A DNA stretch of 64,000 nucleotides. It comes from Candidatus Aenigmatarchaeota archaeon (lineage in GTDB: Archaea > Aenigmatarchaeota > Aenigmatarchaeia > QMZP01 > QMZT01). The stretch covers positions 64,001-128,000 of the forward strand of contig JAPLVC010000004.1 in the NCBI GenBank assembly GCA_026397315.1. Reading direction: 5' to 3'. The translations under genes were made by a program, and so were the position numbers. Below, one piece after another: positions 40,882-44,152 of the stretch. The notes under the pieces are model-generated. The model saw only the letters and a program-made list of their open reading frames with translations, searched no databases and was not told the DNA's origin. The first letter of the stretch is position 1. Every line of letters starts with the position of its first letter.

Positions 40882-42534
40882 ATGAAGAGAAAAGCCGGGA
40901 AAACCGTGACGCAGAAAAATAAAACAGAATCGCTAGCGAACGCCTCCAGCGGTTACGCAGGCGAGCTTCCACACAAAACGTCGTCAATATGCCCGGATTG
41001 CCTTAAAATTCTGCCGGCTCTCGTTTTCGAGGAGGGCGGCAAGGTCTGGATAGAGAAGACGTGTCCGAAGCACGGCAAGTTCCGCGAGATATACTGGAGC
41101 TCCGCCGAGATGTACAGGAAATCGAGGAAGTTCGCTTACGACGGGCATTCCATGGAAAACCCTAACGTAACCAAGGAAAACCCGACCTGCCCCAAAGACT
41201 GCGGCATCTGCTCGCTCCACAAGTCGCAGACGGCGCTGGCGAATCTCGTTGTCACGAACCGCTGCGATCTCAATTGCTGGTACTGTTTCTTCTTCGCGCA
41301 GAAGGCCGGCTATGTCTATGAGCCTTCCTTAGATGACCTGAGAAAGGCCGTGAAGCTCATGACCCGGCAGAAACCCGTTCCAGGCAACGCGGTGCAGCTT
41401 ACCGGAGGCAATCCCGAGCTCAGGGAGGACATACTGGACATAATAAAGATGATAAGAGACGAGGGAGTGGATCACATCCAGCTCAACATGAACGGCACGC
41501 ACAAGTTCTGGAACGACCCGGAATGGACCATGAAAGTCAGGGAAGCGGGCGTGAATACAGTTTACCTGTCGTTCGACGGCGTCACGCCCAAGAGCAACCC
41601 GAAGAACCATTACGAAATCCCGAACATGCTTCAGAACTCGAGGAAAGCCGGCATGGGCATAATACTCGTTCCCACCATAATCAAGTCCGTCAACGACAAC
41701 GAAGTCGGCGACATACTGCGCTTCGGCTTCAGGAACATGGACGTCGTGCGCGGAGTCAATTACCAGCCAGTTTCGCTGGTCGGCCGCATGCCCCGCAAGG
41801 AGCGCGATAAGTTCAGGGTAACCATTCCAGACGTCATACAAAGGATGGAAGAGCAGACGGATGGCCAGATAGTCAAGGAGGACTTCTACCCGGTCCCGAC
41901 CGTGAAGGCGATAACAGATTTCGTCGAGGCGCTTACTAAAAAGCCGCAATACTCGCTTTCGACCCACTTCGCCTGCGGCATGGCCACATACGTGTTCGAG
42001 AACGAAGGCAGAATGCTGCCCATCACACGATTCGTCGACGTCGAAGGATTACTGGAATACATCGAGGAGCAGGCCGGCGAACTGAACAAGGGACGGAGCA
42101 GATACATAATCGGCACCAAGATGCTGTTCAAGATGAATTCGTTCATCGACGGCAAACGCGCGCCGAAAGGCTTCTCGCTCGGCAACATGTTATACAACGC
42201 GCTGATGAAGCACGACTACCGTGCGCTTGGAGCGTTCCACCACAAATCGCTTTTCATCGGCATGATGCACTTCATGGATTTGATGAACTACGACATAGAA
42301 AGGGTAAAGAGATGTTGTATTCATTATTTGACACCCGAAGCGGTGATACCTTTCTGTGCGTTTAATGTTATACCGGAGATGTACAGAGACAAAGTTCAGA
42401 ATAAATATGCTATTTCTTTTAAAGAATGGGAAAAAATGACAGGCAAAACTCTTAAAAATGATTTATACAAAAGAGATATTGAAAAAATTAAAAATACGGA
42501 CTTGTACAGGAAAACCTACGAAGGCTTCTTGTAA
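40882..42534 (+). CDS. tes: radical SAM tetraether lipid synthase (Tes)-like; 3' end replaced
   Basis: Tes couples the tails of archaeal diether lipids to make tetraethers. The 550-residue protein has the radical SAM cluster motif C-D-L-N-C-W-Y-C (C128, C132, C135), the GG segment QLTGGNPELRED, and extra cysteine pairs at the N-terminus (CPDCLK, TCPKHG, CPKDCGIC) as in the Tes/MJ0619 group. The C-terminal CCIHYLTPEAVIPFCAFN segment is also typical. From about 42300 the codon use changes abruptly from GC-rich to AT-rich although the frame stays intact, and a second copy of the terminal 20 codons lies 1 kb downstream. The 3' end is therefore borrowed (see the mobile unit). The stop region overlaps the convergent endonuclease gene by 19 bases. 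Confidence 0.85.
   Translation: MKRKAGKTVTQKNKTESLANASSGYAGELPHKTSSICPDCLKILPALVFEEGGKVWIEKTCPKHGKFREIYWSSAEMYRKSRKFAYDGHSMENPNVTKENPTCPKDCGICSLHKSQTALANLVVTNRCDLNCWYCFFFAQKAGYVYEPSLDDLRKAVKLMTRQKPVPGNAVQLTGGNPELREDILDIIKMIRDEGVDHIQLNMNGTHKFWNDPEWTMKVREAGVNTVYLSFDGVTPKSNPKNHYEIPNMLQNSRKAGMGIILVPTIIKSVNDNEVGDILRFGFRNMDVVRGVNYQPVSLVGRMPRKERDKFRVTIPDVIQRMEEQTDGQIVKEDFYPVPTVKAITDFVEALTKKPQYSLSTHFACGMATYVFENEGRMLPITRFVDVEGLLEYIEEQAGELNKGRSRYIIGTKMLFKMNSFIDGKRAPKGFSLGNMLYNALMKHDYRALGAFHHKSLFIGMMHFMDLMNYDIERVKRCCIHYLTPEAVIPFCAFNVIPEMYRDKVQNKYAISFKEWEKMTGKTLKNDLYKRDIEKIKNTDLYRKTYEGFL
42292..42302. repeat. left 11-bp direct repeat of the mobile unit
   Basis: GACATAGAAAG, encoding D-I-E in tes, occurs exactly where the base composition turns AT-rich. 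The same 11 bases, in the same reading frame, recur at 43462. Confidence 0.6.
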
Positions 42535-43461
42535 GAATTTAGAATTTCTTCTAATTTTTCTGATCTCTTGGGATGTTTGAAACCGACAAGTCTTTGAAAT
42601 TTTTCTATTTCATCTCTTCCTGTAATATTTATGTAATACATATCATTCTTATTTTTTATGACAGAGTTTCTTATTTCTAACTCTTTGAGAATCTCTGAAA
42701 TACCTTCTGCCATTTTTCTGCTGGACGTGGCATAGTTTACAATTCTGAGGCCTTGTCTTTTAGTGTAAGCAACAGAACCATCTCCATCGAAACAACCACG
42801 CAAAAAGCATTTCTTGATTTCTATTGACGATTTTTTTATTTTTTCAGGCACTTTCACTATATCAAATTTTTTACCCTTTGGAATTCCTAATTCATGAAAA
42901 ATAGTTGATATGGTTTTGTTTTTTACATAAACCTGCATTTCATTTTTTTGATATATGTAAAAATTCTTATGGTTAAAAATTTTCTCTATGTTTTCCATGA
43001 AAATTGATCTTAGATGTTTTTGATTGTTTACAAATTCTACCCAAGCCAAGTTTTTGTCTATATGACCATCTGTTATTATCAATCCCATTAAATATGCCAG
43101 GTTCCCATCGATAGCAATGGGCAAACTTCTTTTAACAGGCAAACTTCCCTGCGCCGAGCCTATTCTAATGACTTTTACTTCTATCAATCGCGTGTCCATT
43201 TTAACACTCTCGTTTATTTTCAAAAGTGTTTTTACAGGTATCAAAAACTTACCGTTAAACCACCTGCTTACTGTGAATTGCCCTACTCCCAGATAACCAG
43301 CGAGCTTGTATTGGCTGCCAAAACTTACCAGTGCTTTGTTGAAAAACTCTTTTCTGAAGTTTTCTTCAAGCTCGACAGAAAGTTCGCTAATTTCATATAA
43401 ATTTAAGCAGTTTTCCATGATATTATATGCACTTTTAGGACATATAAACAATTTTCAACAT
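42303..43461. mobile_element. homing-endonuclease unit carrying a replacement tes 3' end
   Basis: The AT-rich segment between the two 11-bp repeats contains, on the plus strand, the last 77 sense codons of the intact tes frame and, on the minus strand, a LAGLIDADG endonuclease gene that overlaps it tail to tail. On the right side the displaced old tes end survives. The repeat-to-repeat period is 1170 bp, a multiple of three. This fits an endonuclease that cuts the 3' end of tes and brings a recoded, cut-resistant end with it. Confidence 0.7.
42516..43418 (-). CDS. LAGLIDADG homing endonuclease with N-terminal HTH
   Basis: A 300-residue protein. Residues about 30-70 form a helix-turn-helix (QYKLAGYLGVGQFTVSRWF). 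Two LAGLIDADG-type motifs follow: LAYLMGLIITDGH (about 107-119) and CFLRGCFDGDGSV (about 204-216). Each ends in the acidic residue needed for metal-dependent cleavage, so a monomeric, active enzyme is likely. The start at 43418 is chosen because TTTATATG on the minus strand lies about 25-30 bases upstream; the frame extends to 43451. Very AT-rich. It is antisense to tes and not fused to any host protein, so it is neither an intein nor obviously intron-borne. Confidence 0.88.
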   Translation of the reverse strand: MENCLNLYEISELSVELEENFRKEFFNKALVSFGSQYKLAGYLGVGQFTVSRWFNGKFLIPVKTLLKINESVKMDTRLIEVKVIRIGSAQGSLPVKRSLPIAIDGNLAYLMGLIITDGHIDKNLAWVEFVNNQKHLRSIFMENIEKIFNHKNFYIYQKNEMQVYVKNKTISTIFHELGIPKGKKFDIVKVPEKIKKSSIEIKKCFLRGCFDGDGSVAYTKRQGLRIVNYATSSRKMAEGISEILKELEIRNSVIKNKNDMYYINITGRDEIEKFQRLVGFKHPKRSEKLEEILNSYKKPS

Positions 43462-43521
43462 GACATAGAAAGCATCAAGAAAAGCGAAGTCTACAAAAAG
43501 ACTTACGAAGGGTTCGTTTGA
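43459..43521 (+). pseudogene. displaced original C-terminal end of tes
   Basis: Twenty codons plus TGA encode HDIESIKKSEVYKKTYEGFV, which aligns end to end with the present tes terminus RDIEKIKNTDLYRKTYEGFL. The protein similarity is strong, but most codons differ at the third base. The remnant uses host-like codons (AAG, AGC, GTC, TTC), while the active end is AT-rich. It has no start and is cut off from tes. Confidence 0.8.
43462..43472. repeat. right 11-bp direct repeat of the mobile unit
   Basis: GACATAGAAAG, identical to 42292-42302 and in the same codon phase (D-I-E). It lies at the start of the displaced tes end. Confidence 0.6.
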
Positions 43522-43579
43522 CCTGATTAGGCATACTGAATAAATATTATAAACCACCTCAACCAAAATTCTATTTACC

Positions 43580-44152
43580 ATGAAAATAATCACTCTCAAA
43601 GCCGCGCTCAAGGACATGAACCGCGTCAATCTCGCTAAGGCGATACGCGAGGGAGCGATTCTCGTTTATCCCACGGACACGCTCTATGGCATCGGCTGCA
43701 ACGCGCTGATTAAGGCGAGCGTCGAGAAAATCGCCCGCGCGAAGGGCCGCGAGCCCGGCAAACCGTTTTCTGTCATAGCGCCGTCGAAAGAGTGGATAAC
43801 CGAGAACACGCGCATAGACGAGAACAACGCGAAATTCGTCGACAGCCTCCTGCCCGGGCCTTACACTGTCATATTGAAGGTGAAGAAAGACATACCGCTG
43901 GTAAGCGGCGACGGCAAGCTGGGCGTGCGCATACCCAAGAACGAGTTCTGCGACTTCATCCGCTCGCAGGGAGTGCCTTTCGTCACGACGTCCGTCAACC
44001 TCGCCACGACCGGTCCCATCGCTTCCATCAAGGAGATGCCGGAGTCGCTAGTAAGCGCCGTGGACTATGCGATAGACGCGGGCGAGCTGAAAGGCGACTC
44101 TTCCAGGATTTTCGACATCAGTGGCAAGGACATGCAGATAATCCGCTGGTAA
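43580..44152 (+). CDS. Sua5/YciO/YrdC threonylcarbamoyl-AMP synthase
   Basis: This enzyme makes threonylcarbamoyl-AMP for the t6A37 modification of ANN-decoding tRNAs. The 190-residue protein is a YrdC domain only, lacking the C-terminal Sua5 domain. Signatures are AILVYPTDTLYGIGCNA, the KPFSVIAPS segment, LLPGPYTVIL and GKLGVRIPKN, and a late TTSVNLATTG. It is followed 37 bases later by an AlkD-like gene. Confidence 0.92.
   Translation: MKIITLKAALKDMNRVNLAKAIREGAILVYPTDTLYGIGCNALIKASVEKIARAKGREPGKPFSVIAPSKEWITENTRIDENNAKFVDSLLPGPYTVILKVKKDIPLVSGDGKLGVRIPKNEFCDFIRSQGVPFVTTSVNLATTGPIASIKEMPESLVSAVDYAIDAGELKGDSSRIFDISGKDMQIIRW

What the first reader, a model, noticed from the sequence alone, without database searches (positions are those of the whole stretch)
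42303..43521. A LAGLIDADG endonuclease unit that overwrites the 3' end of tes and supplies a recoded replacement
The tes frame is continuous, but its last 77 or so codons are abruptly AT-rich. They run tail to tail into an antisense LAGLIDADG gene of the same composition. Just beyond that gene lies the host's own former C-terminus, 20 codons reading HDIESIKKSEVYKKTYEGFV, homologous to the present terminus RDIEKIKNTDLYRKTYEGFL but with different codons. The unit is neither an intein nor an intron: it appears to persist by cutting the 3' end of an essential-type lipid gene and replacing it with a functional, divergent copy that the enzyme would not recognise. This 'repair-by-replacement' lifestyle in a free-standing homing gene is seldom described.
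Basis: partly seen in the sequence, partly recalled or inferred. Interest (0 to 1): 0.85.

Follow-up and report, generated by a model that had tools for sequence, protein, structure and literature searches.

The report
Homing gene replacing host gene's tail
In this archaeal genome a selfish DNA-cutting gene sits at the end of a membrane-lipid gene, has swapped that gene's last 79 or so codons for a foreign working version and left the original ending behind as a fossil; the same arrangement recurs in related archaea, a mode of selfish-gene life that I found described only in fungi.

Summary
The host is an aenigmatarchaeon (DPANN). Its tes (tetraether synthase) gene changes composition sharply at codon ~472: third-position GC falls from 0.75 to 0.33. 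The AT-rich tail overlaps, tail to tail, an intact antisense LAGLIDADG homing endonuclease gene (HEG) with its own TATA-like promoter. Right behind that promoter lies the old 20-codon tes ending.

Two related genomes show the same anatomy. G004 has an orthologous endonuclease (52% identity). G024 has a different endonuclease lineage (~26%). Both keep a former tes ending beyond the HEG. Of 42 tes genes compared, only these three show the composition drop. In G004 the gene body belongs with its own family, whereas the tail is closer to another family, so the gene is a chimaera. A fourth unit sits behind hisS, and mirror-image cases appear at the 5' ends of other genes.

This works like the yeast WHO elements, which home into FBA1 and replace its 3' end, and like fungal mitochondrial mobile ORFs. 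It is not a member of those protein families. I found no earlier description in archaea, in a limited library. Cleavage of the native allele and resistance of the replaced one are inferred and remain to be tested.

The parts
40882..42294 (+). tes (tetraether synthase / GDGT-MAS), resident body, codons 1-471, host-like GC3 ~0.75
   Evidence: Pfam Radical_SAM and HMPTM zinc ribbon; body groups with family f1 at 99/99
42289..42312 (+). left junction interval (codons 470-477, best 472), in the strongly conserved NYDIERVKRCC stretch
   Evidence: GC3 change-point with 2-lnL interval, 0 of 500 permutations as strong
42295..42534 (+). replacement 3' end of tes: 79 codons plus stop, GC3 ~0.33, imported with the unit
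   Evidence: ends RDIEKIKNTDLYRKTYEGFL*
42516..43418 (-). LAGLIDADG homing endonuclease gene, 300 aa: N-terminal helix-turn-helix-like part plus two LAGLIDADG motifs (GLIITDGHI, GCFDGDGSV); last 19 nt overlap the end of tes
   Evidence: PF14528 E 4e-20; model pLDDT 91.7, Foldseek hits I-DmoI, I-Tsp061I and archaeal intein endonucleases; 52% identical orthologue in G004
43441..43448 (-). TATA-like box of the endonuclease gene (TTTATATG, about 23 nt before the ATG); the stretch TTTATAT[GA]TCCTA[AG]AAGTGCATA is shared with G004 and marks the right end of the unit
   Evidence: sequence comparison of G000 and G004
43449..43458 (.). right junction between the endonuclease promoter and the host remnant
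43459..43521 (+). former native 3' end of tes, HDIESIKKSEVYKKTYEGFV*, left as untranslated remnant
   Evidence: flank-duplication score 77, random maximum 53 apart from one truly homologous pair
43580..44152 (+). Sua5/YrdC gene; in HEG-free relatives an open frame of about the same size follows tes directly (e.g. G007, G005), so it marks the outer right flank

Best explanation
It is a terminus-replacing homing unit made of a foreign, divergent tes 3' end fused to an antisense, self-promoted LAGLIDADG endonuclease gene. Proposed cycle: the enzyme cuts an uninvaded tes allele somewhere in the 3' coding region (inferred). The break is repaired from an allele carrying the unit, with the left crossover in the highly conserved NYDIERVKRCC codons and the right crossover in the short duplicated tes ending behind the endonuclease gene (junction positions shown, recombination steps inferred). 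The host keeps a continuous tes whose tail is now the unit's version; its own last codons end up beyond the endonuclease as a remnant. The new tail lacks the native target, so the enzyme is tolerated (inferred). The unit needs no splicing, and because its gene overlaps the tes stop codon a simple deletion would damage tes.
For: Same anatomy in three genomes of two families: G000 (window), G004 and G024, each with tes, convergent overlapping LAGLIDADG gene and native tes ending beyond it. The endonucleases of G000/G004 and G024 are different lineages, ~26% identical. GC3 steps at codons 472, 468 and 464, and in no HEG-free tes of comparable size. In G004 the body is f1-like (+0.079, 95% CI 0.050 to 0.108) and the tail f4-like (-0.128, CI -0.201 to -0.056). 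G004 and G024 tails share 79.6% of bases, their bodies 66.7% over the 64 comparable codons. The G004 remnant has the same SSELYRKTYEGFV as the native end of G007 in its own family. Endonuclease intact, both motif aspartates kept, third codon positions diverge most (0.36/0.24/0.62). Similar unit at hisS in G031: flank score 66 against a random maximum of 53. The same mechanism is experimentally supported for WHO elements.
Against: No cleavage data, target site or population polymorphism. The 78-column tail tree is weak: G004 falls in the f4/f5 group (81/90), but the AU test does not reject an f1 placement (p 0.12). For G000 itself the tail remains f1-like, so its foreign origin rests on composition plus the remnant, not on family discordance. 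Remnants begin at different codons (20, 13-14 and 26 from the end), so no exact common insertion point is visible. G024's tes is cut by its contig end, so only 64 codons of its body could be compared.
Confidence: 0.85

Rival explanations
1. Passive horizontal transfer: a stretch holding an AT-rich tes tail and a neighbouring HEG was swapped in by ordinary homologous recombination, with the endonuclease playing no part.
For: Cleavage is not shown; chimaeric tes genes could arise by recombination alone. The conserved crossover region would serve ordinary recombination too.
Against: The tail step occurs only where a HEG is attached: 3 of 3 with, 0 of 39 without. Two unrelated endonuclease lineages give the same anatomy, and a duplicated host ending beyond the HEG is not expected from a simple swap.
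Confidence: 0.1
2. In-place duplication: the tes 3' end was duplicated by the insertion, and the copy now in frame drifted to AT-rich codons.
For: A duplicated ending is present.
Against: The tail of G004 is closer to another family than to its own, and the composition breaks sharply some 60 codons upstream of the duplicated part.
Confidence: 0.03
3. Assembly or binning artefact joining tes to unrelated DNA.
For: The genomes are fragmented, incomplete assemblies; the G004 record is titled MAG.
Against: Three separate genomes show the same structure; the tes frame is open across the junction; the convergent genes overlap by 19, 19 and 8 nt.
Confidence: 0.02

Closest known systems
WHO elements of Torulaspora and Lachancea yeasts (Coughlan et al. 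2020, PMC7282813)
   Same: LAGLIDADG endonuclease gene outside but beside the host gene; homing replaces the host gene's 3' end with a resistant version; a duplicated 3' fragment beyond the endonuclease gene serves as second homology; some WHO genes also lie opposite to FBA1; the host gene becomes a chimaera.
   Different: Eukaryotic nuclear, host gene FBA1, endonuclease derived from the VDE intein with a zinc finger, tandem clusters. Here: archaeon, tes, LAGLIDADG_3-type enzyme with a helix-turn-helix-like N-terminus, gene overlap with the host, a single unit. Cleavage was shown for WHO, not here.
Fungal mitochondrial mobile ORFs replacing C-termini (Allomyces macrogynus atp6; Glomus atp6, atp9, cox2, nad3: Beaudet et al. 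2013, PMC3630166)
   Same: Foreign C-terminal coding segment plus endonuclease ORF inserted, native C-terminus left downstream, hybrid gene used.
   Different: Organelle genomes; ORF described as in phase with the host gene in atp6 and nad3; here the endonuclease is antisense with its own promoter-like site, in a cellular genome.
I-DmoI, I-Tsp061I and archaeal intein endonucleases
   Same: Endonuclease fold and paired LAGLIDADG motifs.
   Different: Those lie in introns or inteins and are removed by splicing; no intron or intein is present here.

Membership tests
Terminus-replacing (WHO-type) homing element, as a mechanism | Endonuclease gene beside an uninterrupted host gene, no splicing | tested here: met
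   tes frame open, HEG antisense with its own promoter-like site; no Rfam intron
Terminus-replacing (WHO-type) homing element, as a mechanism | Host 3' end of foreign origin, different history from the body | tested here: met
   GC3 step in G000, G004 and G024; family discordance in G004. In G000 the evidence is composition only
Terminus-replacing (WHO-type) homing element, as a mechanism | Duplicated native 3' fragment beyond the endonuclease gene | tested here: met
   scores 77, 56 and 55, random maximum 53; codon listing
Terminus-replacing (WHO-type) homing element, as a mechanism | Enzyme cuts the native but not the replaced allele | not testable with these tools
   needs biochemistry
WHO/HO protein family | VDE-intein-derived endonuclease with zinc finger | tested here: not met
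   Pfam finds LAGLIDADG_3, Hom_end and helix-turn-helix matches, no zinc finger or Hint domain
Intein | In-frame insertion with splicing domains | tested here: not met
   tes aligns end to end with relatives without insert; HEG on the opposite strand, no Hint hit
Group I intron with HEG | Intron RNA around the HEG | tested here: not met
   no Rfam match up to E 1 in 42200-43700
LAGLIDADG homing endonuclease | Fold and two acidic motifs | tested here: met
LAGLIDADG homing endonuclease | Site-specific cleavage activity | not testable with these tools
   intact and constrained gene only

The most novel reading that the evidence does not exclude
Aenigmatarchaeota carry a whole class of terminus-replacing homing units that act at either end of important genes: 3' ends of tes (three times, two endonuclease lineages) and hisS, and 5' ends of alaS, topA, a MinD-like gene and a helicase, where the endonuclease gene abuts or overlaps the start codon and a new N-terminus is supplied. 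If so, splicing-free homing arose independently in archaea and makes essential genes mosaic.
Probability: 0.5. Interest if true: 0.8.

Novelty: new variant of a known kind. Interest (0 to 1): 0.66.

Why it matters
Homing endonucleases that invade cellular genes are usually thought to need an intron or intein. [quoted passage not shown] Finding the same anatomy in archaea, with unrelated endonucleases and at several genes, suggests the class arose more than once. It would also explain why single genes such as tes can have ends with different histories, which can mislead lipid-gene and species trees, and it gives a ready test system: allele pairs with predicted sensitive and resistant ends.

Tried and rejected
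Searching for the endonuclease in viral contigs gave only weak partial matches, so no viral source is claimed. The AU test on the 78-column tail did not reach significance and is reported as such. A flank match in G065 (score 113) looks like paralogy between two neighbouring RFC-like genes, judged from the sequences by eye, not duplication. The convergent HEG behind an aspartate/ornithine carbamoyltransferase gene in G036 shows no remnant and no composition step, so it is not counted. G007, without a HEG, has a mild GC3 dip in codons 475-504, but its change-point test is not significant (p 0.13). The recoding-for-resistance idea could not be tested computationally because the target site is unknown.

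Full report
Setting. The window lies in a fragmented genome of 1.05 Mb (G000, seven contigs).

The observation. tes is one frame, but its third-position GC drops from 0.75 to 0.33 at codon 472 (interval 470-477; no permutation of 500 as strong). The AT-rich tail runs into an antisense gene at 42516-43418, overlapping the last 19 nt of tes. That gene encodes a 300-residue protein with a helix-turn-helix-like N-terminus and two LAGLIDADG motifs. A confident model (pLDDT 91.7) matches I-DmoI, I-Tsp061I and archaeal intein endonucleases. A TATA-like box lies about 23 nt before its ATG, and the stretch from box to start is closely similar in G004. Ten bases beyond that box begins HDIESIKKSEVYKKTYEGFV*, the old tes ending. 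Comparing the two sides of the endonuclease gene gives a score of 77; among 1499 random pairs of flanks the best was 53, apart from one pair with real homology.

Other cases. I compared the tes 3' regions of about 70 tes-bearing genomes of the class. Two more have the arrangement. In G004 (another genus of the same family) the endonuclease is 52% identical, also overlaps tes by 19 nt, and is followed by SSELYRKTYEGFVD*, while the present end reads SSELYKKTYAGFL* in other codons. In G024 (another family of the order) the endonuclease belongs to a different lineage (~26% identity) and the remnant is YKRNVRKLRMDPLYRETYRGFVKGLR*. The G004 remnant matches the native end of G007 in its own family residue for residue over SSELYRKTYEGFV, as a former host ending should.

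Foreign origin of the tails. Of 42 tes genes, only the three with a HEG lose more than 0.2 in GC3 after codon 473. Bodies of G000 and G004 fall in one family clade (99/99). For G004 the body is closer to its own family (difference +0.079, CI 0.050 to 0.108) but the tail is closer to family f4 (-0.128, CI -0.201 to -0.056), and its tail DNA is closest to that of G024 (79.6% against 66.7% in the comparable body). The tail tree agrees (81/90), but an AU test on 78 columns is not significant (p 0.12). For G000 the tail stays within its own family's type, so there the foreign origin rests on composition and the remnant.

Mechanism. Cutting in the native 3' region, left crossover at the conserved NYDIERVKRCC codons and right crossover in the duplicated ending would reproduce the junctions seen. 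The cut, the crossovers and the resistance of the new tail are inferences. The closest precedent is the WHO element family of yeasts, which home into FBA1 and replace its 3' end, with cleavage of one allele but not the other shown by experiment (PMC7282813). Fungal mitochondrial mobile ORFs (Allomyces, Glomus) have similar anatomy (PMC3630166). The archaeal proteins lack the VDE/zinc-finger make-up of WHO and HO, so this works like WHO without being a member. Searches of the paper library found no archaeal description, but most subscription papers are not in it.

Wider picture. Among about 60 free-standing HEGs of this group tested, a unit in G031 stands behind hisS with a duplicated hisS ending (score 66). 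Thirteen HEGs abut or overlap the start of a downstream gene on the same strand. In G027 a native-looking alaS start, MFTKESLKKKFSDDF, is left upstream of the HEG (score 50, inside the random range on its own), and the first 30 residues of the present alaS lose their family affinity. In G097 a similar relic precedes a gene that I take for a radical SAM enzyme. In three GC-rich hosts (topA in G117, a MinD-like gene in G037, a helicase in G018; gene names read from the sequences by eye) the first codons are abruptly AT-rich. These 5' cases are suggestive, not proved.

Noticed in passing
L074 4380-5600 and 5889-7187 (G031:C16): LAGLIDADG gene behind hisS with a duplicated hisS C-terminus beyond it: a fourth end-replacing unit, at another gene and with the HEG on the same strand as its host gene.
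   Followed up: partly
L072 4766-6300 (G027:C70): HEG directly upstream of alaS, with a relic of the native alaS start (MFTKESLKKKFSDDF) on the far side: a possible 5'-end replacement.
   Followed up: partly
L137, L080, L159 (G117, G037, G018): HEG abutting the start of topA, a MinD-like gene and a helicase gene; the first 17, 13 and 188 codons of these genes are significantly AT-richer than the rest.
   Followed up: partly
L143 (G097:C40): Relic MGICRICGKESKFISSYLNL upstream of a HEG whose 3' end overlaps a gene that now starts MENKKICRVCKTVKPISQFLGVC: another possible 5' replacement.
   Followed up: partly
L036 4020-4976 (G004): A further AT-rich open stretch on the minus strand lies between the tes remnant and the Sua5 gene in G004, absent from the window.
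   Followed up: no
tes of G031 and G051: tes matches split inside single long frames (1002 and 1065 aa) at about codons 136 and 174, the pattern expected of in-frame inteins elsewhere in the same gene.
   Followed up: no
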